A DNA stretch of 64,000 bases. It comes from Candidatus Latescibacterota bacterium. GTDB lineage: Bacteria > JAAXHH01. The stretch spans positions 815,330-879,329 of the forward strand of contig JAJEEG010000006.1 in NCBI GenBank assembly GCA_022821085.1, written 5' to 3'. A program made the position numbers and the translations under genes. Below the pieces are notes generated by a model. That model ran no database searches and was not told where the DNA came from. It saw only the letters and a program-made list of their open reading frames with translations. How positions within the stretch are numbered: position 1 is the stretch's first letter; the number at the start of each line of letters is the position of its first letter. This document shows positions 6,956 to 58,640 of the stretch, one piece after another.

Positions 6956-9241
6956 ATGGCGATCGACGACGACGCCGTCGTTCGGAAGGCGAAAGCCGGG
7001 ATCTCCGGTTTCCTCGAAGAGCAGTTCCGACGCGGGCTGATCGACGAAGGACTCTACGAACAGGCCCGTCTGAACGTACTTCCGAATCTGCGCCGCTGGT
7101 TGACCGACCCCCACATCGGCCGGTTGTCCCCCCGGCTCGGCGACGGACTGCGAAGCGCCGTCGAAGCGGCCAGGTGGGATGAACTGGTCGAAGCCTACGT
7201 GGACGAGATCAAGTTCGGCACGGCGGGCATACGCGGCAAAGCCGCCATGTCGGACGAGGAACTGCTGATCCTCTCCCGCGAAGGCATGGACGCCCCCATC
7301 CTCAAGGGGCCCAATACCCTCAACAACATCGTTCTCCTGCTCAAGTCCACGGGCGTCGCGAAGTACGCGACCGCTCATGGACTCCGGTCCATCGTCATCG
7401 GCTATGACAGCCGGGTGGCGGGCCGGGATTTCGCCTGGCTGGTGTCCGGGGTATTCCTCGCGGAGGGGCTGAAAGTCTACCTCTTCGACGAAGCCGGTCC
7501 ATACCCGGAAATGACCTTCGCCATACCGACGCTGGGCGCCGACATGGGCATCCTGATCTCGGCGAGCCATAACGACCGAAGATACAATGGCTACAAGCTT
7601 TCCGCCGGGACGGGGTCGCAGTTTTCTCCCCGGGAACGATCGGTCATCTACAACGAATACATCCGGAAAACGACCCCGGCCCAGATCGCCCTTTTGGACT
7701 TCGAAGACGCCGGGGTCGATCCGGATCACCCCGAAGACCCTCGCCGTGACGGCAACAGGCTCGTGTTCCTGGGCGGTGCCGCGCCGCTGGCAGGATTCGA
7801 CTATCTCGGCCGCCCCCTCGTCGATATCCACCGGATGTACCAGGACCAGATCCGGGGATTCATTGCCGACGCCGCGATGATGAAGTCGTGGGCGCCCTCC
7901 ATCGGGATCGGGTACTGCGCGTTTCACGGGGCCGGACGCAAGGCGGTTCCCCGTTTGTTGCGTGATTTCGGTTTCACCCGGGTGGACACGGTTACCCACC
8001 ACCGGTTGAACGAGCTCAACGGGCTCTTCCCCGCCTTTCAGGAACATCCGGAACAACAGCCGGACCCGGGCGATCCCACGGCGTCCGAGATCGCCGTTGA
8101 CGCGTACGTCGAACAGTACGGCGCCGATGCCATGGAGGCGCTCGACCTGATGATCGGGACCGATCCGGACGCCGACCGGGCGGGGCTCGTGGTCAAAGTC
8201 CCCCCTGCCTTGCGGAAATACCACGAAAACCGGTCCCACGTGCTGCTGTCGGCCGACGACGCATGGTCTCTGCTGCTCTGGTACCGTCTGTCGCAGCTCG
8301 CCGGGAACGCGCGGGGCGGGAACGCACAGGACGCCGGGAACACGCGGGGCGGGAACGCACAGGACGCCGGGAACGCCCGGGCCTCTAGCCGGCGGCCGGA
8401 GGAGTCGTTCATCGTGCTTTCCCACATCACGACCGACGCGCTGGTCCGGCTCGCCCGGAAACACGGTGTCGGCGTCGTAAAGACCTGGGTAGGGTTCGGC
8501 CTGATCGCCAACGCGGTCGAGCGGGTGTGGGCGGGCGACGACCTGTCGGACTCCCGGTTCAAAGACATCATCTATCAGACCGTGGAAATGGAAGGTATGC
8601 CCCGGCGCTACAACGTGGGGTGCCTGGAGCAAAGCAACGGATTCAGTATCCTGGGCGGACCGCCCGATACGGCCGCGGCCATGGGAAGCAACGGCCACGT
8701 GCGCGACAAGGACGGTGTATTCGCCGCGATCCTGCTCGCCGAAGTGGCGGCCTATGCCGCGTCCGTTGGGACGACGGTCTACGAACTGATCGACGAACAG
8801 ATCTACCTGGATCCCGATATCGGGTATTTCGCCACCGACGTCGTACCGGTCCCGCGCTGGGGAGAATTCAAGGGATTGGAAGGATTGACGCGGAAGATCG
8901 GCATCCTGAGACGATGCGCGGAACTGGGACAGCGCGTCCGGGACGGCGCGTCCCTCTCGCTGGACGGCCTACCGGTGCGGTCATCGGAAACCTTCGTGGC
9001 GGGCAAGTACGCGGATGCGCACCAGTGGCCGGGCTTTCCCGACGAGGGCATTCGATTCTATTTCGACGAGGAAAGACTCAACTACCTGACCGTGCGGCCG
9101 TCAGGCACGTCGCAGTGCCTCAGGTTTCACATCCAGTTGAAAGCGGAGAACCTGTCGCGAAACGGTCTGGCGCGACAGAAATACGAGACCAGGATGCGCG
9201 CCCGGAAGATCATCCACGCGATGCGCGACCTGATAATGTAG
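6956..9241 (+). CDS. Phosphoglucomutase/phosphomannomutase family protein (phosphohexomutase)
   Basis: 761 residues, longer than the usual 450-600 of alpha-D-phosphohexomutases. All four landmarks are present: KFGTAGIRGK (about residue 84), the phosphoserine loop ISASHNDRRYNGYK (Ser near 203), the metal loop GTDPDADRAG (near 400) and the C-terminal phosphate clamp VRPSGTS (near 712). It should interconvert sugar 1- and 6-phosphates (glucose most likely) in the cytoplasm. An 11-residue glycine/asparagine-rich repeat is inserted at about residues 450-475, between the metal domain and domain 4, in frame with the rest. Substrate specificity cannot be told from these motifs. Confidence 0.88.
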   Translation: MAIDDDAVVRKAKAGISGFLEEQFRRGLIDEGLYEQARLNVLPNLRRWLTDPHIGRLSPRLGDGLRSAVEAARWDELVEAYVDEIKFGTAGIRGKAAMSDEELLILSREGMDAPILKGPNTLNNIVLLLKSTGVAKYATAHGLRSIVIGYDSRVAGRDFAWLVSGVFLAEGLKVYLFDEAGPYPEMTFAIPTLGADMGILISASHNDRRYNGYKLSAGTGSQFSPRERSVIYNEYIRKTTPAQIALLDFEDAGVDPDHPEDPRRDGNRLVFLGGAAPLAGFDYLGRPLVDIHRMYQDQIRGFIADAAMMKSWAPSIGIGYCAFHGAGRKAVPRLLRDFGFTRVDTVTHHRLNELNGLFPAFQEHPEQQPDPGDPTASEIAVDAYVEQYGADAMEALDLMIGTDPDADRAGLVVKVPPALRKYHENRSHVLLSADDAWSLLLWYRLSQLAGNARGGNAQDAGNTRGGNAQDAGNARASSRRPEESFIVLSHITTDALVRLARKHGVGVVKTWVGFGLIANAVERVWAGDDLSDSRFKDIIYQTVEMEGMPRRYNVGCLEQSNGFSILGGPPDTAAAMGSNGHVRDKDGVFAAILLAEVAAYAASVGTTVYELIDEQIYLDPDIGYFATDVVPVPRWGEFKGLEGLTRKIGILRRCAELGQRVRDGASLSLDGLPVRSSETFVAGKYADAHQWPGFPDEGIRFYFDEERLNYLTVRPSGTSQCLRFHIQLKAENLSRNGLARQKYETRMRARKIIHAMRDLIM
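8303..8380 (+). repeat. 33-bp tandem repeat inside the mutase gene
   Basis: Two full copies (8303-8335, 8336-8368) differing at a few positions and a 12-base partial third copy. Each copy encodes 11 residues (GNARGGNAQDA or GNTRGGNAQDA), so the frame is kept. The segment is low-complexity and lies between conserved domains. Confidence 0.9.
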
Positions 9242-9279
9242 CGTGTCTCACATGGGCCGGCGGCATCGGGGACGGCTTG

Positions 9280-11100: not shown

Positions 11101-11184
11101 CTTGCCAGTGCTCCTTACGGACTTGAGGCGGCCGGGCCGGCCAGGCCGACTGCATGATTCCGGACGATGCTGAAAAGAAACGTA

Positions 11185-11213
11185 AATATAAAGGACCGAA
11201 CATTCGCCGGCAA
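11185..11213 (-). promoter_or_regulatory. Sigma70-type promoter for ppiD
   Basis: Read on the minus strand: TTGCCG (11213-11208), 17-base spacer, TATATT (11190-11185). Predicted start near 11178, about 78 bases before the ppiD ATG. Confidence 0.55.
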
Positions 11214-11255
11214 CTCATTTGTCCTGAGGCGGGCCGGCAGTGGGGCAAAAGATGC

Positions 11256-11284
11256 TTGACAGTCCCTGCCGCTTCGCCTATTAT
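11256..11284 (+). promoter_or_regulatory. Sigma70-type promoter for rpmE
   Basis: TTGACA at 11256-11261, 17-base spacer, TATTAT at 11279-11284: eleven of twelve consensus positions. Predicted start near 11291, leaving an 83-base leader before rpmE that contains a tandem duplication and a small hairpin. Confidence 0.78.
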
Positions 11285-11292
11285 TGCCTCGC

Positions 11293-11327
11293 GCGCTTCG
11301 AACGAGAACGCGCTTCGAACGAGAAGC
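11293..11327 (+). repeat. 17-bp tandem duplication and hairpin in the rpmE leader
   Basis: Two 17-base copies (11293-11309, 11310-11326), identical except for the last base. The second copy can fold GCTTC (11312-11316) with GAAGC (11323-11327) around a six-base loop. L31 leaders with regulatory structure are known in several phyla; whether this one is such an element is not shown by sequence alone. Confidence 0.6.
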
Positions 11328-11373
11328 AGACCGGCCGTGGAGTTTCAATAGCGTTGATCAAGGAGCTTGACCG

Positions 11374-11577
11374 ATGAAGAGCGGTATTCACCCGGAATAC
11401 AAAGAAATCACGGTATCCTGCGCCTGTGGCAATACGTTCCAGACACGCTCGACGATCGACACGATCCACGTGGAGATCTGTTCGGCGTGCCATCCCTTCT
11501 ATACCGGGAAGCAGAAGATGGTCGACAGTGCGGGCCGCGTGGAACGCTTCAACAGGAAGTACGGCATAGACGAGTAA
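11374..11577 (+). CDS. rpmE: 50S ribosomal protein L31, zinc-binding type
   Basis: 67 residues beginning [12 protein letters not shown], with the zinc ribbon pairs CAC and CSAC (in SCACGN and [12 protein letters not shown]), so it is the zinc-containing (C+) paralogue. AAGGAG lies 8 bases before the ATG. It has its own near-consensus promoter and precedes prfA, a common neighbour pair. Confidence 0.97.
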
Positions 11578-11673
11578 TCCTTAAGGCCGAGGTCGCCCGT
11601 TCCTTCCGGGCGAGATGGCCAGGCTTGCCCCGACCTTCGGTTGCACCGATCCCCTTTCCTATCCCATGCCTCC

Positions 11674-12756
<1,083 letters not shown>

Positions 12757-12769
12757 TGCAAGCCACCGG

Positions 12770-13861
12770 ATGGGATTCATGAACGAAGTCGAATGTCCCG
12801 CCGCGTCAACCGTGCTCCAGGCGGTTGACTGGGCGGCCCGTAAGCTGGACGGCCGGTCGGATCACGGCGGCCCGGAGAGCCACGCAACCTCGACGGATCA
12901 CGGCGGCCCGGCAGATCACACCAGCCCGGCAGATCACACCAGCCCGGCGAATCACGTTTGCCGTGTCGAATCGGAACTGCTGCTCGGCGAGGTGTGCGCG
13001 TCGAACCGACTCGAGCTGTACCTTGATCCCGACCGGCGGCTCGACAAGCTGGAATCTTCGCGGTTTTCAGCACTGGTCGGACGGAGAATGCGCGGGGAAC
13101 CGGTCCAGTATCTCACGGGCCGTACGGAATTCTACGGTCGCGGGTTCGAGGTTTCGCCCGCCGTGCTGATCCCCCGGCCCGAGACCGAACGGCTCGTCGA
13201 CCACGTACGCCCCTTCCTGGATGGGGTGCACCGCGAACGGACCGGGCATCCGGCCGTGACGGCCAACGTTCGGCAACCGGGCGTCCGGAAGGCCGACGTC
13301 CGGCAGACCGGTAGTCCGTTTGCAGATTCCCCCGTGCGTTTCGCGGATATCGGCACGGGCTCGGGCGTCCTGGCGGTCACGCTCGCCCTGGAATGCCCTT
13401 TCGCGCAGGGGTACGCCACGGATGTTTCCGATGAGGCCCTGGAGGTCGCGCGCAGGAATGCCGAAAACCTGCTGGGGCTCCGTCAAAGCAGCATCACCTT
13501 TATGCAGGGTTCGCTGCTGGCGCCCCTCGATACGCTTGCGCCGCACACCCTGGACCTGATCGTGTCCAACCCGCCCTACGTCACTTCCCGGGAAATGGAC
13601 GGCCTGCCGAAGGAGGTGCGCGGGTACGAACCCCGGCTGGCGCTCCACGGCGGCGAAGACGGCCTGGAATGTCATCGCGCGCTCATCGGGCAGGCGCCGG
13701 AGTACCTGAATGAAGGCGGGATGATCGCACTGGAGATCGGCGCCGCACAGTCCGCCGCGGTGACCCGCTCGATCGCGGATCGCCGCGCCTATGGAAACGT
13801 GAAGATCGTGAAGGATTACAACGGCCTGGACCGCATCGTGTCCGCCATATACGTCGGATAA
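12770..13861 (+). CDS. prmC: Release factor glutamine methyltransferase, with two repeat insertions
   Basis: 363 residues against about 280 in the family. S-adenosylmethionine motif DIGTGSGVLAVTLA and catalytic NPPY (N267-Y270) are intact, as are YLTGRTEFYG and PRPETE. It N5-methylates the GGQ glutamine of release factors. The excess length is two in-frame inserts: an 18-bp repeat after the first N-terminal helix (about residues 31-62) and a degenerate 10-residue duplication (about 165-184) in the linker before the methyltransferase fold. A second ATG at 12779 could also serve as start. Confidence 0.93.
   Translation: MGFMNEVECPAASTVLQAVDWAARKLDGRSDHGGPESHATSTDHGGPADHTSPADHTSPANHVCRVESELLLGEVCASNRLELYLDPDRRLDKLESSRFSALVGRRMRGEPVQYLTGRTEFYGRGFEVSPAVLIPRPETERLVDHVRPFLDGVHRERTGHPAVTANVRQPGVRKADVRQTGSPFADSPVRFADIGTGSGVLAVTLALECPFAQGYATDVSDEALEVARRNAENLLGLRQSSITFMQGSLLAPLDTLAPHTLDLIVSNPPYVTSREMDGLPKEVRGYEPRLALHGGEDGLECHRALIGQAPEYLNEGGMIALEIGAAQSAAVTRSIADRRAYGNVKIVKDYNGLDRIVSAIYVG
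12860..12955 (+). repeat. 18-bp tandem repeat inside prmC
   Basis: Five adjacent 18-base units from 12860 to 12949, the last two nearly identical (12914-12931, 12932-12949), the second unit strongly diverged, plus a partial sixth. Each encodes a hexapeptide such as DHTSPA or DHGGPA. Frame is preserved. Confidence 0.88.
13262..13321 (+). repeat. 30-bp degenerate duplication inside prmC
   Basis: Two 30-base units (13262-13291, 13292-13321) encoding ANVRQPGVRK and ADVRQTGSPF. Conserved at the first six residues, in frame, located between the N-terminal domain and the DIGTGSG motif. Confidence 0.65.
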
Positions 13862-19192: not shown

Positions 19193-20749
19193 GTGTTGAT
19201 ACAGCTTTCCAGACTACTGGACGCGCTGCCTCGGAAAGAGGTGATCCGCCCGTCGGGTCGGACCGACCGTACCGACCAGGCCGGCCGGGCGGACCGGGCG
19301 GCCCGGGCGGCCCGGGCCAACCAGGTCGCCCGGGTTGACCCGGAGATCGGCGGCATCGTCCACGATTCGAGGTCCGTCAAGCCCGGCGATGTCTTTGTCG
19401 CGCTGCGCGAGCCGTCGGGCCGCGACGGCCACAGGTACGTCCGCGACGCGGTGGCGCGGGGCGCTTCGGTGGTTGTCCAGGAAAACGAAGAACGCCTCGA
19501 TGACGCGACCGCGGTGATCGTTCCGGACACCTCACTGGCGTACGGCCTGATGGCTGCCGCGTTTTACGGCCGGCCGGCGGACGGCCTCAGCCTGATCGGC
19601 ATCACGGGGACCAACGGCAAGACGACGGTGTCGCTGCTCGTCGAGGCCATACTCAGGGAGTGCGGCCGGTCCGTGGGCGGGATCGGCACGCTGGGCAGCC
19701 GGTTCATGGGCGCGATGCTCGACTGGAAGCTGAGTCACACCACGCCCTACCCGATGGAACTGCACCGCACCTTGAGGCGGATCCGGGACCAGGGAGGCGA
19801 ATGCGTCGTCATGGAAGTATCCTCGCACAGCCTGGCCTGGCAGCGGCTGTCCGGCCTGCGGTTCAGTACGGGCGTCTTCACCAATCTCTCCCGGGAACAC
19901 CTGGACGACCACAAGACCTTTGACGCATACAGGGAAGCCAAGACGTTGCTTTTCTCCGAACTGCTCGACGAGGGGGGCACCGCCGTCCTCAACATGGACG
20001 ATCCCGCCTTCGTGCATTTCAGGAACGCCTCGCGTGCCCGCGTCCGTACCTATGGACTGGACAAGAGAGCGGAGGTCCACAGGGCGGGTCCGATCGGATA
20101 CCACGCGGACCGGACCACCCTTGCAGTGCAGGTTCGTTCCGATCCGCCGTTCAACGTGACGCTGCCGCTCCTGGGCCGATTCAACGCGTACAACGCCCTG
20201 GCGGCGATTTCCGTGGGGCTGGAGTTCGGCATCGACGGCGCGCTGATGAACCGGGCCGTATCCGGGATCACGGTACCCGGCCGGCTGGAGCGCGTCGACG
20301 CCGGACAGCCGTTCAACGTACTCGTAGATTTTGCCCATACGCCCGATGCACTCGGCGCCGTGCTGTCGGCCTGCCGGGAATGGACGCGGGGGAACCTGAC
20401 TGTCGTGTTCGGCTGCGGCGGGGACCGGGACCCGGGCAAGCGGCCCCTTATGGGCAGGGCGGCGTCCACCCACGCCGACGTCGTCATCGTGACGACCGAC
20501 AACCCCAGAACGGAACCGCCCGACCGGATCATACGGGATATCGAGCCGGGCCTGCTGCCCCACGTTCGCTCCCATATCGTCCAGGACCGTGGCGAAGCGA
20601 TCCGGAAGGCCCTGCGCGAAGCGGGCGAAGGAGACACCGTGCTGATCGCCGGAAGGGGAGACACGGTCTACCAGGTCGTGGGCGATTCGCATATCGAGTT
20701 CGACGACCGTACCAAGGCCCGGGAATGTCTCGAGGCGCATTATGGGTAA
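19193..20749 (+). CDS. murE: UDP-N-acetylmuramoyl-tripeptide synthetase MurE, meso-DAP type
   Basis: 518 residues if started at GTG 19193, which follows GAGGG and gives the usual short MurE N-terminus; TTG 19196 is equally plausible, and an upstream ATG at 19127 inside ftsI would add 22 residues. ATP site ITGTNGKTT; the DNPR motif (D436-R439) is the signature of enzymes adding meso-diaminopimelate rather than lysine. A low-complexity Arg/Ala/Asp-rich insert precedes the conserved HDSRSVKPGDVFVAL. Cytoplasmic step of peptidoglycan precursor synthesis. Confidence 0.93.
   Translation: MLIQLSRLLDALPRKEVIRPSGRTDRTDQAGRADRAARAARANQVARVDPEIGGIVHDSRSVKPGDVFVALREPSGRDGHRYVRDAVARGASVVVQENEERLDDATAVIVPDTSLAYGLMAAAFYGRPADGLSLIGITGTNGKTTVSLLVEAILRECGRSVGGIGTLGSRFMGAMLDWKLSHTTPYPMELHRTLRRIRDQGGECVVMEVSSHSLAWQRLSGLRFSTGVFTNLSREHLDDHKTFDAYREAKTLLFSELLDEGGTAVLNMDDPAFVHFRNASRARVRTYGLDKRAEVHRAGPIGYHADRTTLAVQVRSDPPFNVTLPLLGRFNAYNALAAISVGLEFGIDGALMNRAVSGITVPGRLERVDAGQPFNVLVDFAHTPDALGAVLSACREWTRGNLTVVFGCGGDRDPGKRPLMGRAASTHADVVIVTTDNPRTEPPDRIIRDIEPGLLPHVRSHIVQDRGEAIRKALREAGEGDTVLIAGRGDTVYQVVGDSHIEFDDRTKARECLEAHYG
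19287..19322 (+). repeat. 9-bp tandem repeat inside murE
   Basis: Four 9-base units (gggcggacc, gggcggccc twice, then a diverged copy) within a longer Arg/Ala-rich stretch near the MurE N-terminus. The unit is a multiple of three and keeps the frame. Confidence 0.7.
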
Positions 20750-29227: not shown

Positions 29228-31912
29228 ATGGCCGAGGGATTGCCCCCTCAGTACGATCCCGGAACCGTTGAGCGGAAGTGGTACGCTTTCTGGGAAGAGC
29301 ACCAGTTCTTCCACGCCGATCCGGCTTCCGGCAAGCCCCCCTATTCCATCGTCATACCCCCACCCAACATCACCGGCATACTCCACCTTGGCCACGTGCT
29401 GAACAACACGATCCAGGACGTGCTCATCCGGTTCAAGCGCATGCAGGGTTTCGAAACCCTCTGGATGCCGGGAACGGATCACGCCGGTATCGCCACGCAC
29501 GTCGTCGTGGAACGGATGCTCGCGGAACGGGGCATCGACCGGAAGGAAATCGGCCGCGAGCGATTCGTGGAAGAAGTTTGGAAATGGCGCGAGCAGTACG
29601 GCGGCACGATTGTCCGCCAGTTGAAGGAACTGGGCTGTTCCTGTGACTGGAAGCGCGAGCGTTTCACCATGGACGAGGGGCTTTCCAGGGCGGTACTCAC
29701 GGTATTCATCGCACTTTTCGAAAAGAAGATGATCTACCGGGGCAATCGCATCATCAACTGGTGTCCCCGCTGCAACACCGCCCTGTCCAACGAGGAAGCC
29801 GTTCCCCGGGACGAGCAGGGATCGTTGTGGCGGATCCGGTATCCCCTGGCAGACGGCACGGGCGGGATCAGCATCGCCACGACGAGGCCGGAGACCATGC
29901 TCGGCGACGCGGCGGTTGCCGTCCACCCTGAAGACGAGCGGCACGCGCACCTGGTGGGCAAACGGGTCAGCCTGCCGCTGACGGACCGGACCATCCCGAT
30001 CATCGCGGACGCGGAATTGGTGGACCGGGCATTCGGCACGGGCGCCGTCAAGGTGACGCCGGCACATGATTTCAATGATTTCATCCTCGGAAACAAGCAC
30101 GATCTTCCCCAGATCGTGATCATGGACGAGGATGGCGCGATGAACGAATCCGCCGGTCCCGCCTACCGGGGAATGGACCGGTTCGAGTGTCGTCGCAGGG
30201 TCGTGAAGGACCTCGAAGACCTCGGCCTCCTCGAAGGGATCGAAGGCCACGTCCACGCCGTCCGCCACTGCCAGCGTTGCGATTCGGTCCTCGAACCCCG
30301 GCTTTCCCGCCAGTGGTTCCTGAAGACCCGGCCGATCGCCCGCCGCCTCCTGCGCGCCCTGGACGAAGACCGGCTGCCGGGCTTCACGCCGGAGCACTGG
30401 GAGAAAACTTACCGTCACTGGCTCGAAAACATCGAGGACTGGTGCCTTTCCCGCCAGCTGTGGTGGGGGCACCGCATTCCGGTATGGTACTGCGCGTCGT
30501 GCGGAAGCGCGCACGCGGGTATCGAAGCGCCCGGGCAATGCGGCCGCTGCGGCCACGGCGTGCTGCACCAGGACGAAGACGTGCTCGACACCTGGTTTTC
30601 TTCGGCCCTGTGGCCTTTTTCGACCATGGGCTGGCCGGAACGCACGGCGGAACTTGAGACCTTCTATCCCACCTCCACGCTGGTGACCGGCCACGATATC
30701 CTGTTCTTCTGGGTCGTTCGCATGATGATGATGGGCTACGAATTCAAGGACGACCGGCCCTTCGACGACGTTTATCTCACGAGCCTGGTCCGCGACATCA
30801 AGGGACGCAAGCTGAGCAAATCGCTGGGCAATTCGCCCGATCCCCTGGAAGTCATGGATACCTACGGCGCCGACGCGCTGAGGTACGCCATGATGTTGAT
30901 CGCGCCGCACGGACAGGACTTGCTGTATTCCAACGAACAGGTCGAAGTGGGGCGCAATTTCGCGAACAAAATGTGGAATGCCGCACGGCTGGTACTCATG
31001 CACCAGAAGACGACGGAATCCGGCCTTGCGGTATCCGGCCTCCCGGAATCCGAGAACCTGTGGGACCGCTGGATCCTGTCCCGGCTGGACCGAACCGTTG
31101 AACAGGCGACGCGGTCCCTGGAGCAATATGCCTTCCACGAGACGGCGCTGCTGCTCTACGACTTCTTCTGGCACGACTTCTGCGACTGGTATCTCGAAGC
31201 GATCAAGCAACGGCTCTACGACGAGACGGACGTGGCGTCCGCGGATCACGCGCGTCGCACGGCCCTGCTTGTGCTCGAACAGACGCTCCGCCTGTTTCAT
31301 CCGTTCATGCCCTTCATCACCGAGGAAATCTGGCAGCATCTGAGACCCTACCTGGATGACCGGGACGCGGAACCGGCCGGCATCGTCGTCGCGCCCTGGC
31401 CGGAGACCCGTCCGGACCGGGTCCAGGCGGATGCCGAAGGGGACATACGTTACGTCCAGGAACTGATCGGGGCCATTCGCGGCGTCCGTGCCGATTTCAG
31501 GGTCCATCCTACCCAGGAGATGGCGGTGCACTGCCGGATCGCGGACCCCCGCCTGATCGAAGTGCTCTCCGGACAGGCTCAGGCCGTCCAGTCGCTTGCC
31601 CGGTGCACGCTGGCCTTCGTCGACGGCGACGAGGCCCGCCCCTCCGGTTGCGCGTCCGGCGTGTTGCGGGACATGGAATTCTACATCCCGCTCAGCGGGC
31701 TGATCGACCTGGAAATCGAAACAGATCGCCTTTCCAGGGAGCGGACCCGGGTCGAACAGGAACTGGAGAAGGTCCGCAAGCGCCTGTCGAACGGCCAGTT
31801 CGTGCAAAAGGCGCCCGCAGAGGTCGTCGAGAAAGAAAAGGACAAGCAGAACAACTACGAGGACATGATCGGCCGGCTGAATCGGAATCTCGAAATGATT
31901 TGTGCAGGATGA
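29228..31912 (+). CDS. valS: Valyl-tRNA synthetase
   Basis: 894 residues. Class I signatures HLGH (53-56, in PPPNITGILHLGHVLNN) and KLSKS (528-532, in GRKLSKSLGNSPDP); the editing domain carries TTRPETMLGD; the ARFADEI-free anticodon domain and a C-terminal coiled coil (RLSRERTRVEQELEKVRKRL) typical of ValRS complete it. Charges tRNA-Val and edits Thr mischarging. Its TGA overlaps the next ATG. Confidence 0.97.
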   Translation: MAEGLPPQYDPGTVERKWYAFWEEHQFFHADPASGKPPYSIVIPPPNITGILHLGHVLNNTIQDVLIRFKRMQGFETLWMPGTDHAGIATHVVVERMLAERGIDRKEIGRERFVEEVWKWREQYGGTIVRQLKELGCSCDWKRERFTMDEGLSRAVLTVFIALFEKKMIYRGNRIINWCPRCNTALSNEEAVPRDEQGSLWRIRYPLADGTGGISIATTRPETMLGDAAVAVHPEDERHAHLVGKRVSLPLTDRTIPIIADAELVDRAFGTGAVKVTPAHDFNDFILGNKHDLPQIVIMDEDGAMNESAGPAYRGMDRFECRRRVVKDLEDLGLLEGIEGHVHAVRHCQRCDSVLEPRLSRQWFLKTRPIARRLLRALDEDRLPGFTPEHWEKTYRHWLENIEDWCLSRQLWWGHRIPVWYCASCGSAHAGIEAPGQCGRCGHGVLHQDEDVLDTWFSSALWPFSTMGWPERTAELETFYPTSTLVTGHDILFFWVVRMMMMGYEFKDDRPFDDVYLTSLVRDIKGRKLSKSLGNSPDPLEVMDTYGADALRYAMMLIAPHGQDLLYSNEQVEVGRNFANKMWNAARLVLMHQKTTESGLAVSGLPESENLWDRWILSRLDRTVEQATRSLEQYAFHETALLLYDFFWHDFCDWYLEAIKQRLYDETDVASADHARRTALLVLEQTLRLFHPFMPFITEEIWQHLRPYLDDRDAEPAGIVVAPWPETRPDRVQADAEGDIRYVQELIGAIRGVRADFRVHPTQEMAVHCRIADPRLIEVLSGQAQAVQSLARCTLAFVDGDEARPSGCASGVLRDMEFYIPLSGLIDLEIETDRLSRERTRVEQELEKVRKRLSNGQFVQKAPAEVVEKEKDKQNNYEDMIGRLNRNLEMICAG

Positions 31913-32766
31913 GCGTCGAGTGCTATATTGATTTGCACGCCCACAGCGACTGTTCCGACGGTGTCGATTCCCCGGAAGAACTCGTGTCGAAGGCCCGTGC
32001 TGCGGGCCTGTGCGCACTGGCGATTACGGACCACGACGCGGTCGAAGGCGTGGAGCGGGCCCGGCGCGAATCTGCCCGGCGCGAATCGGCCCGGCGCGAA
32101 TCGGCCCTGGACCTGGAGATCGTACCCGGCGTGGAACTCAGTGCGCGGGCAGGTGATTCCGACGTGCATATCCTGGGCTACTACTTCGATCCAGGCAACC
32201 GGTCGCTGCTTTCGTACCTGGAGACATTCCGTTCGCAGCGTCTGCACCGGGCGAAGGGCATCGTCCGGAAGCTGAACGACTTGGGCGTACCGCTTGAACT
32301 GGATTCGGTCATCGCTCACGCGCAGGACGGAAAGACCAGCGTTGGCAGACCGCATATCGCCCGCGCGCTGGTGGAAAGCAATCAGGTCGATTCGATACAG
32401 GACGCTTTTACACGGTACCTGGGCAATCACGCCCCCGCGTTCCTGCCCAAGGTTTTTTTCGCCGTCGAGGATGCGATCCAGGTGATCCACGACGCCGGCG
32501 GCGCGGCCGTGCTTGCCCATCCGGGGTCCCTCAGGCGGGACGAATTGATCCCCGGTTTCGTAAAGTCCGGCCTGGACGGCCTGGAGGTCATCCATCCGGA
32601 CCACTCCGGAACGGCCCGCCGCTACTATGGGCAACTGGCTGCGAAGCACGGACTGGTGGCAACCGGCGGATCGGACTATCACGGACCCCGGGCGGACCGT
32701 TGCAGCCTTGGCGGCATGAAGGTACCTCTGCATCATCTGACCGATCTGAAACGGATATTGGCTTGA
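31909..32766 (+). CDS. PHP-domain phosphoesterase (YciV/RNase AM-like)
   Basis: 285 residues from ATG 31909, ATGA overlap with valS. Metal ligands of the PHP fold: DLHAHSDCSDG at residues 8-18, ITDHDAVEG near 40-48, PGVELSA, the HPGS motif and a final GSDYHGPR. The best-known relatives act on 3',5'-nucleotide bisphosphates or RNA 5' ends. A repeated ARRES pentapeptide (three copies) is inserted just after the second metal motif. Substrate is not determinable here. Confidence 0.88.
   Translation: MSVECYIDLHAHSDCSDGVDSPEELVSKARAAGLCALAITDHDAVEGVERARRESARRESARRESALDLEIVPGVELSARAGDSDVHILGYYFDPGNRSLLSYLETFRSQRLHRAKGIVRKLNDLGVPLELDSVIAHAQDGKTSVGRPHIARALVESNQVDSIQDAFTRYLGNHAPAFLPKVFFAVEDAIQVIHDAGGAAVLAHPGSLRRDELIPGFVKSGLDGLEVIHPDHSGTARRYYGQLAAKHGLVATGGSDYHGPRADRCSLGGMKVPLHHLTDLKRILA
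32059..32103 (+). repeat. 15-bp tandem repeat inside the PHP gene
   Basis: Three adjacent 15-base copies (32059-32073, 32074-32088, 32089-32103) with one base difference, each encoding ARRES. In frame. Confidence 0.92.
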
Positions 32767-33861: not shown

Positions 33862-34707
33862 ATGTTCCGGTTCTTCTACATTCTCTACTACCATCGCCAG
33901 TACACCGCTTTCGCCCTCGCCATGGTCATCTCGATCCTGCTGCTGACGGCGGCCCCGCAGCAGCAGGTCGGTATCACGCGTATTGTCTGGCTGACGGTAC
34001 TGACGCCGTTCCAGGAGGCGTTCGCCTTCATCCCTTCCTATTTCAATCTCAAATCCGAAAACCAGCTGCTGCGCCAGAAACTCGTCCAGATGCAGTTACG
34101 GGCGGCCGATCTCGAGGAAGGCAGATTCGAAAACCAGCGGCTGCGAGGGCTACTCAGCCTGAAGGAGAAAAACAGGTATATCTATGTACCCGCCGAAGTC
34201 ATCGGCTGGAACACGGACCAGAGACTGAACACCATCGTCATCGATGTCGGCCGTTCCGAGCAGATTCAGAAATACATGGCCGTTGTCATGGAAGACGGCG
34301 TCCTCGGAAGAATCATCGAAGTCGGCCTGACTTCGTCCTACGTCCAGCTGCTGACCGACAGGAACAGCCGTATCAGCGGCCTCGTCCAGCGGAGCCGGGA
34401 ACAGGGGACCATCCGGTACGTGAATGACGCGTTGTACATGGAGTTGCCCCTTCGGGCCGATGTCCGCATTGGCGACCGCGTGGTGACGTCCGGCCTGGGG
34501 GGGACCTTTCCGCCCGGATTGCCTGTGGGCAGCATCGGCCAGATCGCGCTGGATAGCCGGAACCTGTTCAAACAGGTTTCCATTACGCCCGCGGTGGAAC
34601 TCAATCGCCTGGAGGAGGTGTTCGTGATCGCGGGTGAACAAACGCCTGCCGAAGAAACGCCTGCCGAAGAAACGCCTGCCACGGCAGATTCGCTTCTGGC
34701 CCAGTGA
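33862..34707 (+). CDS. mreC: Rod-shape determining protein MreC
   Basis: 281 residues. N-terminal membrane helix (about 14-30), a coiled coil (SENQLLRQKLVQMQLRAADL), then the beta domain with VIGWNTDQRLNTIVIDVG, MEDGVLGRI and VVTSGLGGTFPPGLPVG. Periplasmic scaffold linking MreB to PBP2/RodA. The extreme C-terminus is a threefold PAEET repeat absent from the family. Confidence 0.95.
   Translation: MFRFFYILYYHRQYTAFALAMVISILLLTAAPQQQVGITRIVWLTVLTPFQEAFAFIPSYFNLKSENQLLRQKLVQMQLRAADLEEGRFENQRLRGLLSLKEKNRYIYVPAEVIGWNTDQRLNTIVIDVGRSEQIQKYMAVVMEDGVLGRIIEVGLTSSYVQLLTDRNSRISGLVQRSREQGTIRYVNDALYMELPLRADVRIGDRVVTSGLGGTFPPGLPVGSIGQIALDSRNLFKQVSITPAVELNRLEEVFVIAGEQTPAEETPAEETPATADSLLAQ
34636..34680 (+). 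repeat. 15-bp tandem repeat at the mreC 3' end
   Basis: Three 15-base copies encoding EQTPA, EETPA, EETPA; copies two and three are identical. In frame and close to the stop codon, so a copy-number change would only alter the tail. Confidence 0.9.
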
Positions 34708-37069: not shown

Positions 37070-38287
37070 ATGGAAACCCATTTAAGCCGCACCCTCGTCA
37101 TCATATCCATCCTTTTGTCCGTGATCGGCATCATCGTGATCTACAGCGCCACGCGGGACGAGACCGGCCTGGGCACGTCCCGATACATGCTGCAGTCCAT
37201 GTGGTTCGTGGCCGGCATCGGGGTGATGTACATCACGTCGGTGTTGCCCATTCGTTTCCTCCAGGCCATTACCATTCCCGTATTCGTCGTGGTGATGATC
37301 CTGCTGGTCGTTGTGCTGGCCTCCGAAACCGTCAAGGGGTCCAGCCGGTGGATCAGACTCGGCTTCATCGGCATCCAGCCTTCCGAACTGGCGAAGATCG
37401 CCGTCATCATGGCGCTTGCGCAGTATCTTTCCCAGTTGCGGACCAACATACACCGGCCTTCGGTCATGGCCACCTGTGGCGTAATCGTGGCGTTGCCCGT
37501 TTTTCTCATCCTGTCTCAGCCCGACCTGGGCACCTCCATCGTCTTCGGGGCGATCTTCTGCGGCGTGCTGCTCTGGGCGGGGTTGAGCGTCCTCCAGCTG
37601 CTGCTCATGGTATCCCCGTTGATCGGTGTCGTGATCGGCGTGGTGAGCGGGTTCGACTGGGTCATCTGGTCCGTATTCATACTGATCGTGGCGGGCATCA
37701 TGTACCTGAAGTGGCCGCCTCGGTTCGTTACCATATTCCTCACGGTCACGCACCTGGCCGTGGGTCTGGGTGCGGAGCCCCTGTGGGATTCGCTGCACGA
37801 CTACCAGCAACAACGCGTCGAAACCTTCCTGAATCCCCAGGTCGACCCAAAAGGCGCGGGATACCAGATCATCCAGTCCAAGATAGCCATTGGATCGGGC
37901 GGACTGCTCGGACGCGGGTTTCTGCAGGGATCCCAGACCAGCCTTGCATTCCTGCCCGAGCAGCACACGGACTTCATCTTCTCGGTCATCGCCGAGGAAT
38001 TCGGTTTCGTAGGCTCGATGGCCGTCCTCATCCTATGCTATGTCTTCATACTCATCGGGATCTATATCGCAATGAACGTCAAGAGCCGGTACCAGAGCCT
38101 GCTCGCGGCCGGCTGCGTATCCGTCTTCACTTTTCACGTAATCATGAACGTGGGGATGGCCGTCGGTGTGCTGCCGATCGCCGGCGTACCCCTGCCCTTT
38201 CTCAGCTACGGCGGCTCCTTTCTGATGACCAGCCTGATCCTGTGCGGTCTGCTGCTGAACGTATGGCGCCATCGATTTGATTACTGA
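37070..38287 (+). CDS. rodA: Elongation SEDS glycosyltransferase RodA
   Basis: 405 residues, about ten membrane helices, 26 bases after mrdA. IVIYSATRD, GIQPSELAKI, LSQPDLGTSIVF, FLPEQHTDFIFSVIAEEFGF and AGVPLPFLSYGGSFL are in SEDS order. It is paralogous to FtsW; the mrdA neighbour identifies it as RodA. Confidence 0.95.
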   Translation: METHLSRTLVIISILLSVIGIIVIYSATRDETGLGTSRYMLQSMWFVAGIGVMYITSVLPIRFLQAITIPVFVVVMILLVVVLASETVKGSSRWIRLGFIGIQPSELAKIAVIMALAQYLSQLRTNIHRPSVMATCGVIVALPVFLILSQPDLGTSIVFGAIFCGVLLWAGLSVLQLLLMVSPLIGVVIGVVSGFDWVIWSVFILIVAGIMYLKWPPRFVTIFLTVTHLAVGLGAEPLWDSLHDYQQQRVETFLNPQVDPKGAGYQIIQSKIAIGSGGLLGRGFLQGSQTSLAFLPEQHTDFIFSVIAEEFGFVGSMAVLILCYVFILIGIYIAMNVKSRYQSLLAAGCVSVFTFHVIMNVGMAVGVLPIAGVPLPFLSYGGSFLMTSLILCGLLLNVWRHRFDY

Positions 38288-38289
38288 CT

Positions 38290-38343
38290 GCTTTTTCACG
38301 CTTGACCGCTGTTTCACGTCTGAATGCTGTTTCACGCCTGTAA
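38290..38343 (+). repeat. 18-bp tandem repeat between rodA and lgt
   Basis: Three 18-base units (38290-38307, 38308-38325, 38326-38343) sharing the core TTTCACG. Located directly after the rodA stop, outside coding sequence. Confidence 0.75.
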
Positions 38344-40182: not shown

Positions 40183-40214
40183 GACCCTTCTGTTTACCTT
40201 TGGCGCGGCGGCAG

Positions 40215-40254
40215 CCCGGCGCCACGGGCAACCCGGCGTCACGGGCAACCCGGC
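40215..40254 (+). repeat. 17-bp tandem repeat between comF-like gene and pfp
   Basis: Copies at 40215-40231 and 40232-40248 (one base different) and a 6-base start of a third. Non-coding; unit length is not a multiple of three. Confidence 0.8.
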
Positions 40255-42733: not shown

Positions 42734-44410
42734 ATGCGTCCGGCGCGTATGCTGTTCTCCCTGATCGCCGGCCTGGCGATCCTGGCGTTTGTCTCCGTAT
42801 CCGCCGGGCAGCCTGGCCAGCCTGGCCAGCAACCGCGCACGAATTCGGTGGGCAAGGTCATGCCTCCCGATGCCGCCCCCCTGTCCCGGCAGGTCATCCG
42901 CGTGATGAACATGGAGCCGCGCAGCATCGACTCCGGCATCCATCCCTATGACGACGAAGGGCTGGTACTGCGACCCTTCGAAACCCTGATGTGGCGCGAC
43001 GAGTTCATGCAGCCCATCCCGGGCGCGGCCGAGCGGTACGAGCGTTCCGAAGACGGCCTGATCTGGACCTTCTACTTGCGGCCCGGCGCCCGGTGGAGCG
43101 ACGGACGACCCGTCACCGCCCACGATTTCGTCTACACGTTCCGTCGGAACATCGATCCCGCATCGGCGAACATTTACGCGAATTTCTACTACGACCTTAA
43201 AAACGCCCGGGCGATCAACCAGGGGCAGATCCCGGACGTGACGCAACTGGGCGTCCGCGCGCTGGACGACCTGACCCTGGTCATCGAGACCGAGCAGCCA
43301 ACGCCCTACCTGCTGTACATCATATCCTTCCCCGATACCTTCCCGGCGCCGCGCTGGGCGATTGAGAAGCATGGCCGCAAATGGACAGAGCAGGGCAAAA
43401 TCGTCACCAACAGTGGATTCAAGATGGCCGAGTGGCTCTCCGGCAGCCACATAAAGTACGTGCCGGATCCCATGTACAATGGTCCCCACAAGCCCTTTCT
43501 GGAACAGGTCGTCCAGCTGTTCCGGGAGCCCGCGGCGGCCAACGTCCTGCCCTACGAAAACGACGAGGTCGATATGGAGGCGGTCGACCTGGCGGAACTC
43601 CACCGTATCCGGAACGACCCCCGCCTCGGCAGGGATATCGTCCGTTCGCCGAGTTACCAGACCTGGTACTTTATTTTCAGGACCCGCGAACCGCCCTTCG
43701 ATGACGTACGGGTGAGGGAAGCCTTTACCCGGATCATCGACCGCGAATCGATCTGCCGCGTGATTCTCCAGGGGGCGGGAATTCCGGCCTATTCCATGAT
43801 CCCACCCGGATTCGACGCCTACGCGGGATCCGAATACGAGCCGATCCAGGGATACGATCCGGACCGGGCCAGGCAGCTCATGGCGGAGGCCGGCTATCCG
43901 CGGGGACGAGGATTCCCGACGGTCGAAACGTGGCTGAGAGCGCCCAATCCCATCACCCGCAGAATCGCCGAGGCGATCCAGGGCATGTTGCGGAATCACA
44001 TCGGGGTGGACATCACCTTCCGCAGCGCCGATATGGGTTCCTACATGAGCGCCCTGTTCGACTGGCAGATTCCTCTCGGATTCATCGCCTGGGGCGCGGA
44101 TTACCTGGACCCGAGGAACATGCTGGACATGACCTGGCATTCCAGGCCGCGGGGGGCGCAGCGCCAGGACTGGACCCATCCCGCCTTCGACGATCTCGTG
44201 GACCGGGCGATCGGGGAAACCGACCCCGCACGGCGCACGGAGATGTACAGGGCGGCCGAACGGATCCTGGTGTCCGACTACGGCGGGGCGTTCGTCTATC
44301 ACCCCATCGGATACGGCCTGCGCAAGCCCTGGTTGAAGGGGTACTCCAGGCGGTCCGACGGGACCGTGGGAAGCCTGCTGTGGACCGAAGTCTACATTGG
44401 TGAACGCTGA
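42734..44410 (+). CDS. ABC-type peptide/solute-binding protein (SBP family 5), copy 1
   Basis: 558 residues from ATG 42734, with GGGAGG upstream. A Sec signal peptide (about 1-24, ending VSVSA) exports it to the periplasm. The body follows OppA/DppA: WTFYLRPGARWSDGRPVTAHDFVYTF (about the first 26 residues of the SBP_bac_5 core), PPFDDVRVREAF and FDDLVDRAI. The mature N-terminus shares TNSxGxxxPPDAAPxxRQV with the protein encoded at 45683-47437. No permease or ATPase gene is near, so the transporter partner is unknown. A small Gln-Pro-Gly repeat (9-bp unit, 42809-42826) follows the signal peptide. Confidence 0.87.
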   Translation: MRPARMLFSLIAGLAILAFVSVSAGQPGQPGQQPRTNSVGKVMPPDAAPLSRQVIRVMNMEPRSIDSGIHPYDDEGLVLRPFETLMWRDEFMQPIPGAAERYERSEDGLIWTFYLRPGARWSDGRPVTAHDFVYTFRRNIDPASANIYANFYYDLKNARAINQGQIPDVTQLGVRALDDLTLVIETEQPTPYLLYIISFPDTFPAPRWAIEKHGRKWTEQGKIVTNSGFKMAEWLSGSHIKYVPDPMYNGPHKPFLEQVVQLFREPAAANVLPYENDEVDMEAVDLAELHRIRNDPRLGRDIVRSPSYQTWYFIFRTREPPFDDVRVREAFTRIIDRESICRVILQGAGIPAYSMIPPGFDAYAGSEYEPIQGYDPDRARQLMAEAGYPRGRGFPTVETWLRAPNPITRRIAEAIQGMLRNHIGVDITFRSADMGSYMSALFDWQIPLGFIAWGADYLDPRNMLDMTWHSRPRGAQRQDWTHPAFDDLVDRAIGETDPARRTEMYRAAERILVSDYGGAFVYHPIGYGLRKPWLKGYSRRSDGTVGSLLWTEVYIGER

Positions 44411-49155: not shown

Positions 49156-49197
49156 GGGACGGGTACCGGTCATTCAGGGACGGGTACCGGCCATTCA
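49156..49197 (+). repeat. 21-bp tandem duplication upstream of the aldo/keto reductase
   Basis: Copies at 49156-49176 and 49177-49197 differ by one base. They sit just before the ribosome-binding site of the reductase gene. Confidence 0.88.
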
Positions 49198-52122: not shown

Positions 52123-52221
52123 GGATGTTTTCGCTCCGGTCCAGGTTTCCCCTCCCGTCAAGGCGCGGCAGGCCCGTGGCACCGACGGGCGGCGTCCGCG
52201 GTACGTAACCGCGCTTCCTGG

Positions 52222-52250
52222 ATACTACGGGAATCGTCGAAGCGAGTCAA
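52222..52250 (-). promoter_or_regulatory. Sigma70-type promoter for the SRPBCC gene
   Basis: On the minus strand: TTGACT (52250-52245), 17-base spacer, TAGTAT (52227-52222). Predicted start near 52215, leader about 93 bases. Confidence 0.65.
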
Positions 52251-52313
52251 ACCACATTAGCCGGACGCGTAGTCCTGGTGGGGTGGCCGGACGAGGGGGC
52301 CGGCAGCCAGGCC

Positions 52314-52362
52314 GTGGTGTCTTCCGGCCTTGACACCGTGGTGTCTCCCCGGCCTTGACACC
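52314..52362 (+). repeat. 24/25-bp tandem inverted-repeat units before the epimerase gene
   Basis: Two copies (52314-52337, 52338-52362). Each contains GGTGTC and GACACC as hairpin arms around about ten bases, so the pair could form tandem stem-loops; the second copy supplies the -35 TTGACA of the next promoter. Confidence 0.75.
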
Positions 52363-52383
52363 ATGCGGTCCCGATTTTAACTT
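52355..52383 (+). promoter_or_regulatory. Promoter of the TIGR01777 gene, giving a near-leaderless mRNA
   Basis: TTGACA 52355-52360, 17-base spacer, TAACTT 52378-52383. Predicted start near 52390, only about four bases before the ATG at 52394, and no Shine-Dalgarno is present. Confidence 0.5.
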
Positions 52384-52393
52384 TCGCCACACT

Positions 52394-53311: not shown

Positions 53312-53333
53312 GCAGACCGGACCGAATCTCTAC

Positions 53334-53387
53334 GACGGCGGTGCCTCTCGCGACGGCGGTGCCTCCCGCGACTGCGATACCTCTCGT
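53334..53387 (+). repeat. 18-bp tandem repeat upstream of the AbgT-type gene
   Basis: Three 18-base units (53334-53351, 53352-53369, 53370-53387), the third more diverged. Non-coding. Confidence 0.82.
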
Positions 53388-53411
53388 CACTAGAAACACT
53401 TAGGAAGGGCC

Positions 53412-55046: not shown

Positions 55047-55063
55047 ATACCCGAACTAACGCA

Positions 55064-56842: not shown

Positions 56843-56866
56843 CTGGCGTCCATGCCTCCAGGATCC

Positions 56867-56998
56867 CTATTCGGGTGCGGCAAACACGAAGTTGACGGGA
56901 CTGCGAATCTTCATCGCGCGCAGGCAGTAGATGCCGTCCCGGTTCGACTTACGCGATGCCTTGCCGTGATTCGTGCCTGCCGTGTTCTGCTTGCCCAC
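56867..56998 (-). CDS. Small protein of 43 residues between two transporter genes
   Basis: GTG start at 56998, TAG at 56867-56869. AAAGGA lies eight bases upstream, the start is two bases past the APC stop codon, and 24 bases separate it from the SLC13 start, so it fits a translated operon gene. Third codon positions are mostly G or C, as in the neighbours. The peptide is basic in the middle (HGKASRKSNRDG) and more hydrophobic at the end (SPVNFVFAAPE); no family recognised and no signal peptide or full membrane helix. Confidence 0.55.
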   Translation of the reverse strand: MGKQNTAGTNHGKASRKSNRDGIYCLRAMKIRSPVNFVFAAPE

Positions 56999-57000
56999 GT

Positions 57001-58410
57001 CTAATGTCCTTTCGCCGGACGTCCGCGCAGATACAGGTAGGCGGGGATGCCCAGGCCGGTCAGCGCGAGACCCGCGATGGATTCGACGGGCGTCTCGAAG
57101 AGCATGTTGGCGAGAATCCCGGCGGAACCCGCGATGAACAGCAGGGGAACGACCGGATAGCCCCAGGCACGGTAGGGCCTGGGCAGGTCGGGCCGTTTCC
57201 TTCGAAGCGTGAACACCGCTGCCGCGCCGGCGATCCACAGCATGAGATTGGCGAAGGTGACGAAGGTGATCAGATCTTCGAAGGTGCCGCTGAGGGTGAG
57301 CACGCAGGCCCAGGCCGCCTGAAACACCACCGCCGGCCCCGGCGTGCGGAATCTGGGATGTACCGATCCCGCCCGGCTGAAGAACAGCCCGTCCCTCGCC
57401 ATGGCGAAATATACACGGGGGCCCACCAGGACGGTGGCGTTCAGCGCGCCGACGATGGACACGAGGACGGCGGCTGACAGCAGGACGGCGCCGGTTTCAC
57501 CGAAGAGCACGTTGGCGGCCGCTTCACCGACCCGAACGACCCCGGCCATGTCCCCCACCGGTAACGCTTTCAGATAGATGAAATTCACCAGCAGGTAGAC
57601 CACGGTGACGCATGCCGTGCCCATGAAAAGGGCGCGCGGCAGGTTCCGCCCGGGATCCCTGACTTCGCCGGCGACGAAGGTGACCTCCTCCCAGCCGGCA
57701 AAGGCCCAGGACACGGCGATCAGCGCGACGCCGAAGGCGACCACCAGTTGCCCGAAGTCTATCTCCTGCGCATTGATACGGAAGTCGATCGGCTGCGTTG
57801 ACCCGGTCCAGACCCCGAACAGGATGAACAGCCCGAGCGCGGCGATCTTGATCACCGAGGAAACGTTGGTGATGTACTTGCTGAAGGTTACGCCGCGGTA
57901 GTTCACCACTGTGAGCAGGAGGACCAGGACGAGCGCGGTGAGGTGCCCGGCGGAGAGCGCATACGGGAAGGTCCAGCCGGGCAGGGCGATTTCGGTTTCG
58001 AAGAACACGTTGGTCATCCCGAGCGCGGGGATGAAGTACCCCGCGTACTCGGCGAATCCCACGCCGAGGGCGGCGATGATCCCGGTCAGGTACATGGTGA
58101 AGGACACCCAGCCGAACAGGAACCCGCAGAACGGTCCGTAGGCTTCCCGGAGGTAGACGTACTGGCCCCCTGCCCGCGGCATGGCGGCGCCGAGTTCACC
58201 GTAGGTCAGCGCGCCGGCGAGGGCGTGCAGGCCGCCGAACAGCCAGGCCAGGAGAATCAGCGTCGCGGACGGTATACCCCGGGCCATCAGGCCGGTGGTG
58301 AGGAATATCCCCGATCCGATCACGATGCCGATGATGATCATCGTCGTGTCGAAAAGGCCAAGCTGGCGGACCAGGCCAGTCTTTTCTTTTTGATCGATTG
58401 AAATTGCCAT
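57001..58410 (-). CDS. APC superfamily amino acid permease
   Basis: 469 residues from ATG 58410, about 12 membrane helices. First helix GLFDTTMIIIGIVIGSGIFLTTG carries the unwound GSGIF substrate/Na+ motif; AGGQYVYLREAYGPFCGFLFGW and SWAFAGWEEVTFVAGEVRDPGRNLP are typical of the LAT/amino acid transporter branch. No Shine-Dalgarno is visible before the ATG. Heads an operon with the 43-residue protein and the SLC13 permease. Substrate unknown. Confidence 0.92.
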   Translation of the reverse strand: MAISIDQKEKTGLVRQLGLFDTTMIIIGIVIGSGIFLTTGLMARGIPSATLILLAWLFGGLHALAGALTYGELGAAMPRAGGQYVYLREAYGPFCGFLFGWVSFTMYLTGIIAALGVGFAEYAGYFIPALGMTNVFFETEIALPGWTFPYALSAGHLTALVLVLLLTVVNYRGVTFSKYITNVSSVIKIAALGLFILFGVWTGSTQPIDFRINAQEIDFGQLVVAFGVALIAVSWAFAGWEEVTFVAGEVRDPGRNLPRALFMGTACVTVVYLLVNFIYLKALPVGDMAGVVRVGEAAANVLFGETGAVLLSAAVLVSIVGALNATVLVGPRVYFAMARDGLFFSRAGSVHPRFRTPGPAVVFQAAWACVLTLSGTFEDLITFVTFANLMLWIAGAAAVFTLRRKRPDLPRPYRAWGYPVVPLLFIAGSAGILANMLFETPVESIAGLALTGLGIPAYLYLRGRPAKGH

Positions 58411-58437
58411 ATATTGAGGGTAGAGGTCGTTACGCCG

Positions 58438-58551
58438 GGCAGCTGAATCCGGCAAGTGCATTGGCAGCTGAATCCGGCAAGTGCGGTGGCAGCCGCATTC
58501 GGCAAGTGCGGTGGCAGCCGCATTCGGCAGGCACGGTGGCAGCCGGTGCGG
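58438..58551 (-). repeat. 25-bp tandem repeat in the APC operon leader
   Basis: Four complete 25-base units starting at 58438, 58463, 58488 and 58513 plus 14 bases of a fifth. Units drift stepwise along the array (1-2 and 3-4 are most alike), as expected from successive duplications. The array is inside the predicted 5' leader of the minus-strand operon. Confidence 0.9.
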
Positions 58552-58578
58552 GCGTAAAGAAGTCGAAAACGAAAGACC

Positions 58579-58607
58579 ATTTTACCTGAACGGCCCGCCG
58601 AAGTCAA
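58579..58607 (-). promoter_or_regulatory. Sigma70-type promoter for the APC-small protein-SLC13 operon
   Basis: On the minus strand: TTGACT (58607-58602), 17-base spacer, TAAAAT (58584-58579). Predicted start near 58572; the roughly 160-base leader contains the 25-bp repeat array. Confidence 0.68.
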
Positions 58608-58610
58608 GGC

Positions 58611-58640
58611 GGGACCAGGCGGGACCAGGCGGGACCAGGC
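58611..58640 (+). repeat. 10-bp tandem repeat upstream of the PhyH-like gene
   Basis: Three perfect 10-base copies (58611-58620, 58621-58630, 58631-58640) followed by a diverged fourth. Non-coding. Confidence 0.85.

What the first reader, a model, noticed from the sequence alone, without database searches (positions are those of the whole stretch)
8303..58640. Many short tandem duplications of unrelated sequence; those inside genes keep the reading frame
At least fifteen arrays occur in 64 kb. Inside genes: 33 bp (mutase), 18 and 30 bp (prmC), 9 bp (murE), 15 bp (PHP), 15 bp (mreC), 9 bp (solute-binding protein 1), all multiples of three. Outside genes: 17, 18, 17, 16, 21, 24/25, 18, 25 and 10 bp, mostly not. 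The units share no motif, so this looks like a local duplication or slippage process filtered by selection rather than a mobile repeat. It has inserted low-complexity loops into highly conserved enzymes. I know of no named system producing this pattern.
Basis: partly seen in the sequence, partly recalled or inferred. Interest (0 to 1): 0.75.

Follow-up and report, generated by a model that had tools for sequence, protein, structure and literature searches.

The report
Short duplications crowding a bacterial genome
Seven related species of an uncultured Latescibacterota genus, probably living in sponges, carry about five times more short, recent copy-next-to-copy duplications than the relatives and other bacteria compared; those inside genes almost always keep the reading frame, so essential enzymes have grown floppy extra loops that differ from species to species.

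Summary
The window has 33 arrays per 100 kb and the sampled genome 25; shuffles give 0-0.4. Perfect duplications of 10 bp or more: 8.6 per 100 kb in the array-rich clade (1.25 Mb) against 1.8 in array-poor congeners and other bacteria. In genes 48 of 51 such units are multiples of three, between genes 19 of 44. Outside one 9-bp family, two thirds of duplications have 4 bp or more of end repeat (2% expected), and in 13 cases with an unduplicated ortholog that repeat is already there (90% of positions). Only indels of 9 bp or more are in excess, so mismatch-repair loss is unlikely. Best reading: slipped-strand duplication between short repeats, accelerated in one clade and filtered by selection on frame. 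One claim fails: about 17% of arrays share a 9-bp unit, (ACCRGGCNG)n, found in all 12 genomes of the genus and in none of 27 others.

The parts
8299..8381 (+). 33-bp array, 2.5 copies, in a phosphoglucomutase/phosphomannomutase gene (residues ~448-475, between PGM domains II and III)
   Evidence: -66 bp in G001, G010, G011, G007, G004, G005, -33 in G008, -18 in G003; Pfam domains
11292..11325 (.). 17-bp perfect intergenic duplication; single copy in all congeners seen
12860..12956 (+). 18-bp array in prmC, residues 31-62; 36-90 bp shorter in nine congeners, while G002 has an equally long but different insertion; predicted disordered
   Evidence: model pLDDT < 50 at residues 31-58
13261..13318 (+). 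30-bp duplication in the prmC interdomain linker, residues 164-183; absent from all other species examined; predicted disordered
   Evidence: pLDDT < 50 at 161-182
19274..19318 (+). 9/18-bp array near murE start (residues 50-64, before the Mur_ligase domain); member of the (ACCRGGCNG)n family
31014..31052 (+).
   Evidence: (-15 bp in eight of nine congeners)
32058..32107 (+). 15-bp array in a PHP-domain gene (residues 50-67); two units fewer in array-poor congeners, two more in G010
34636..34680 (+). 15-bp x3 in the mreC C-terminal tail (residues 259-273); single copy elsewhere
38284..38340 (+). 18-bp array at a gene end; -54 to +36 bp in congeners
40210..40254 (.). 17-bp intergenic array; about two units fewer in G003, G010, G006; same length in G001
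42809..42830 (+). 9-bp array (Gln-Pro-Gly) near the N terminus of a family-5 solute-binding protein; -18 to +54 bp in congeners; 9-bp family
   Evidence: congener stretches L062, L069, L073
48966..49004 (.). 16-bp perfect intergenic array with 7-bp partial copy
49156..49197 (.). 21-bp intergenic duplication; single copy in congeners
52312..52362 (.). 25-bp intergenic array, variable
53333..53386 (.). 18-bp intergenic array, variable
58438..58545 (.). 25-bp intergenic array, 4.3 copies; 75 bp shorter to 25 bp longer in congeners
58607..58674 (.). 10-bp and 18-bp intergenic arrays, variable; the 18-bp one resembles the 9-bp family
59497..59552 (.). 17-bp degenerate intergenic array, longer in G001, shorter in G007

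Best explanation
Short direct repeats of about 4-9 bp (mode 5 in the cases with a known ancestral state) mispair across a gap of roughly 9-40 bp, most likely by slippage of the nascent strand during replication, and the intervening segment plus one repeat is copied twice. A duplicated unit then gains and loses further copies and diverges. In genes, alleles whose unit is a multiple of three and that land in a loop, linker or tail survive; between genes any length survives. The duplication rate, not general indel mutability, is higher in one clade of this genus. Shown: density, copy-number variation between species, frame filter, pre-existing short repeats, excess restricted to events of 9 bp or more. 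Inferred: slippage rather than end joining, and an unidentified change in replication or repair.
For: Copy number varies at all strong arrays in collinear regions. Perfect duplications of 10 bp or more: 8.5-8.9 per 100 kb against 2.0 in array-poor congeners and 1.1-3.3 in other bacteria; ratio 4.8, p=8e-13, not corrected for shared ancestry among congeners. Coding units 48/51 multiples of three against 19/44. End repeats of 4 bp or more in 66% against about 2% expected, present in unduplicated orthologs at 53/59 positions. Indels of 9 bp or more per 1000 substitutions 9.4 against 4.5, 3-8 bp indels 5.0 against 7.8. Array-rich species form a clade, support 1.0 (G006 not in that tree). Repeat peptides rich in A, Q, P, D, G, poor in aromatics, with pLDDT below 50 in PrmC. 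Ku absent from all 11 genomes of the genus searched, which makes classical end joining unlikely.
Against: No gene presence or absence separates rich from poor species: PolA 5' nuclease, MutS, RecJ, ExoVII and Y-family polymerases are present in nearly all. G011, in the poor group, is intermediate (15 TRF arrays per 100 kb, 46 hits to the 9-bp family). Paracoccus at 68% GC has 22 TRF arrays per 100 kb, mostly coding. Part of the excess is a recurrent 9-bp family, which slippage at random sites does not predict. Only 13 events have a clean ancestral state.
Confidence: 0.75

Rival explanations
1. Ordinary background: high-GC bacteria have this many degenerate repeats and nothing is accelerated.
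For: Raw TRF counts overlap with 68%-GC Paracoccus (22 per 100 kb); Sphingomonas has 12. Perfect 9-bp duplications are often conserved chance matches: all but three of the 29 length-conserved cases are 9 bp.
Against: Perfect duplications of 10 bp or more are about five times commoner than in pooled controls and 4.3 times commoner than in array-poor congeners of nearly equal GC; intergenic arrays 56-101 per 100 kb of intergenic DNA against 0-17 in GC-matched controls.
Confidence: 0.1
2. The arrays are kept because they are useful: contingency loci, regulatory spacers or tunable linkers.
For: In the window most coding arrays sit in linkers and tails; intergenic arrays are common between divergent genes (22 of 57, in 24% of intergenic bases).
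Against: Unit, length and copy number differ between species, same-site arrays are often unrelated in sequence, and array-poor congeners do without them; intergenic unit lengths do not differ from one third multiples of three (p=0.2).
Confidence: 0.08
3. A mobile or copied satellite spreads a unit around the genome.
For: The 9-bp family (ACCRGGCNG)n makes up 31/182 arrays here; 22-74 pattern hits in each array-rich genome, 5-46 in the poor congeners, none in 27 genomes of other genera; it is read in several frames (ADQ, GPG, GQP).
Against: The other ~83% of arrays share no clear motif beyond GC richness. Total counts of single 9-mers of the family are only about twice the base-composition expectation (counts, expectation my own estimate).
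Confidence: 0.05
4. Assembly artefact of metagenome-assembled genomes.
For: The named relatives are MAGs, and short reads miscount repeats.
Against: Frame preservation in genes and not between them is not expected from an assembler; independent assemblies agree on array positions with diverged units.
Confidence: 0.02

Closest known systems
Tandem repeats of Borg extrachromosomal elements (Schoelmerich 2023, PMC9879509)
   Same: Genome-wide arrays of mostly unrelated units; in genes unit lengths divisible by three, between genes only 14-38%; flanking partial repeats; disordered repeat peptides; nearly absent from the host genomes. Similar number of arrays: 69 per Mb of 50 nt and ~3 units here against 46 per 829 kb on average in Borgs.
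   Different: A bacterial chromosome with core genes, not a linear archaeal element; units GC-rich (65% against 53% in intergenic DNA) rather than A-rich; most arrays imperfect (24 per Mb at 90% identity or more). Here orthologs show that the short end repeats came first, which the Borg paper suspected ('seed sequences').
Variable-sequence bacterial tandem repeats and satellites (Subirana and Messeguer, PMC6749651, PMC8161180)
   Same: Species-specific tandem repeats of variable sequence, coding ones in multiples of three, abundance differing sharply between related species.
   Different: Those have a constant unit size (20-21 or 52 nt) and often form families; here unit size is broad (9-48 bp between genes, most often 16-18).
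Bacterial VNTR loci and slipped-strand mispairing (general knowledge)
   Same: Same basic mutational step and whole-unit copy-number change.
   Different: Usually few loci per genome, known from strain typing or phase variation; here pervasive, often recent, and in housekeeping enzymes.
Duplications between short repeats in yeast rad27 (FEN1) mutants (own knowledge)
   Same: Segments flanked by short direct repeats are duplicated in tandem.
   Different: The bacterial 5' flap nuclease domain of PolA is present in all genus genomes but one fragmented assembly.

Membership tests
Borg tandem repeats | Unit lengths in genes divisible by three; between genes not enriched | tested here: met
   48/51 against 19/44, the latter not different from one third
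Borg tandem repeats | Arrays flanked by partial repeats | tested here: met
   66% with 4 bp or more extra
Borg tandem repeats | Perfect units, 3 or more copies, 50 nt or more | tested here: not met
   69 arrays per Mb of that size, only 24 per Mb at 90% identity or more
Borg tandem repeats | A-enriched units | tested here: not met
   non-coding units A 19%, G+C 65%
Borg tandem repeats | Carried on a linear extrachromosomal element of Methanoperedens | tested here: not met
   2.87-Mb contig with mur, mre, fts and valS genes; nearest named genomes Latescibacterota
Borg tandem repeats | Copy-number variation within a population | not testable with these tools
   no reads held
Constant-size variable-sequence bacterial tandem repeats | Unit size constant at 20-21 or 52 nt | tested here: not met
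   intergenic periods 9-48 bp, most often 16-18
Mobile repeat element inserted into genes | Common sequence shared by the copies | tested here: inconclusive
   no clear shared motif in most units; a 9-bp family in ~17%
Slipped-strand mispairing loci | Whole-unit copy-number change between relatives | tested here: met
Slipped-strand mispairing loci | Short direct repeats at the ends before duplication | tested here: met
   53/59 positions in unduplicated orthologs, 13 events

The most novel reading that the evidence does not exclude
One clade of this genus carries a heritable change in its replication or repair machinery that raises the rate of 9-40 bp tandem duplications about two- to five-fold without raising short indels, so that a mutational bias alone, sieved for frame, keeps inserting disordered loops into essential enzymes, MutS among them.
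Probability: 0.35. Interest if true: 0.65.

Novelty: new variant of a known kind. Interest (0 to 1): 0.5.

Why it matters
It supplies something the Borg paper could only suspect: orthologous sites before and after duplication, showing that short end repeats precede the arrays. It also offers a bacterial genus with array-rich and array-poor species at 84-94% identity, in which the cause of a duplication-prone state, and the tolerance of core enzymes to new disordered loops, can be studied by comparison.

Tried and rejected
Loss of a repair gene as cause: PolA 5' nuclease, MutS, RecJ, XseA and Y-family polymerases are present in nearly all genomes searched (single misses in fragmented G005 and G009); Ku absent from all 11. 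Mismatch-repair failure: short indels not raised. Hairpin-driven slippage of the 9-bp units: folding z-scores -0.2 to -2.4 for the four sequences tried, no consistent structure. Viral origin of the 9-bp family: 12 stretches with an exact match in 2.9 million viral contigs. 'Arrays only between domains': many lie inside Pfam envelopes as insertions, e.g. sulfatase, RibD, transglutaminase. Literature on tandem repeats in Latescibacterota: none found in the held library.

Full report
Setting. The window is part of a 2.87-Mb contig of a 3.75-Mb genome. The nearest named genomes are Latescibacterota MAGs, some labelled Gemmatimonadetes. That the genus lives in sponges is my inference, from isolate names and from papers on sponge-associated Latescibacterota. 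Eleven congeners are held. The window is collinear with six array-rich congeners at about 90-91% blastn identity (91-93% in my own alignments) and with the others at about 82-83%.

Is it there? I extracted the orthologous stretch of each from up to ten congener stretches. The strong arrays all change length, mostly by whole units: the mutase array is shorter by 18, 33 or 66 bp, the mreC array is single-copy elsewhere, the first prmC array is 36-90 bp shorter in nine congeners, while G002 has an equally long insertion of different sequence there. Weak TRF hits with constant length (8926, 24186, 37620, 53533, 57479, 59237, 61334) are not arrays.

Is it more than chance? The window has 33 arrays per 100 kb and order-3 shuffles give 0-0.4 for this genome; 744 kb of the genome has 25. 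Raw TRF density is a poor discriminator: a 68%-GC Paracoccus stretch reaches 22. Perfect duplications of 10 bp or more separate better: 8.5 per 100 kb here, 8.9 in array-rich congeners, 2.0 in array-poor congeners, and 3.3, 1.2, 2.0 and 1.1 in four control sets. Pooled ratio 4.8, p=8e-13, a figure that ignores shared ancestry among congeners. Perfect 9-bp cases were left out because many are conserved chance matches.

Frame. With a gene finder trained on this genome, perfect units of 10 bp or more are multiples of three in 31/33 coding and 4/19 intergenic cases here, and in 48/51 and 19/44 with array-rich congeners added. Intergenic lengths do not differ from one third (p=0.2). TRF arrays of this genome: coding 91/101, intergenic 24/58.

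How duplications start. For a duplication with unit p, matching bases beyond p measure the direct repeat at its ends. Outside the 9-bp family, 66% of cases have 4 bp or more, where about 2% are expected from base composition. Thirteen duplications in the collinear region have an unduplicated ortholog of exactly the expected length; it carries the short repeat at 53 of 59 positions, most often 5 bp. Example: GGAGC-CTTGCCAAAAA-GGAGC in G006 against a second copy in G003.

What is accelerated. In three pairs of array-rich species, indels of 9 bp or more are 9.4 per 1000 substitutions, against 4.5 among poor species; indels of 3-8 bp are 5.0 and 7.8 (the poor pairs include more distant species). 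This argues against general indel mutability and mismatch-repair failure. The rich species form a clade (G006 lacked data there but is 90-94% identical to the others). The repair genes examined do not separate the groups. G011, in the poor group, is intermediate.

What the proteins get. 77 of 584 genes sampled carry a TRF array; repeat peptides are enriched in A, Q, P, D and G and poor in aromatic and large aliphatic residues. In the window the insertions sit between PGM domains II and III, between ValS catalytic and anticodon domains, before MurE domain 1, after the MreC barrel, and in two PrmC loops; the PHP array lies inside its domain. AlphaFold gives pLDDT below 50 to PrmC 31-58 and 161-182, the array positions, in a model of mean 75.9. 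Elsewhere arrays also lie inside domain envelopes.

A shared unit after all. 31 of 182 arrays here, 18 of 98 in rich and 7 of 20 in poor congeners fit (ACCRGGCNG)n; none do in the control sets. Genome-wide the three-unit pattern, one mismatch allowed, gives 72 (overlapping) hits here, hits in all eleven congeners and none in 27 genomes of other genera. It is read in several frames (Ala-Asp-Gln, Gly-Pro-Gly, Gly-Gln-Pro), so the DNA unit recurs rather than one peptide. Whether it spreads by copying or keeps arising from one favoured sequence is open.

Comparison. Borg tandem repeats share the frame rule, mostly unique units, flanking partial repeats and disordered products (PMC9879509), but differ in replicon, composition and perfection. 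The constant-size bacterial repeats of Subirana and Messeguer differ in unit size. I file this as a new variant of lineage-specific tandem-repeat proliferation.

Limits. No reads are held; 744 kb of 3.75 Mb was sampled; gene calls are my own; controls are 750 kb from other genera plus 250 kb of array-poor congeners; why one clade is accelerated is not known.

Noticed in passing
L173 (G000:C3), L175-L177, against L180-L183: In four array-rich species the MutS linker between the ATPase core and the C-terminal YQLSLF (clamp-binding-like) motif is expanded by Gly/Ala/Asp-rich repeats; it is short in array-poor species.
   Followed up: partly
genome-wide; window 19274-19318, 42809-42830, 58638-58674: Genus-specific 9-bp repeat family (ACCRGGCNG)n, 72 overlapping pattern matches in this genome, present in every congener, none in 27 genomes of other genera.
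   Followed up: partly
L092:5385-6941: LpxC-FabA-like fusion protein with an (Ala-Asp-Arg)n tail of the 9-bp family.
   Followed up: no
   Followed up: yes
intergenic arrays in the sampled 744 kb of G000: 22 of 57 intergenic arrays lie between divergent genes, which hold about 24% of intergenic bases; cause unknown.
   Followed up: no
G011 (L076, L077): This species of the array-poor group has 46 hits to the 9-bp family and 15 TRF arrays per 100 kb, intermediate between the groups.
   Followed up: no
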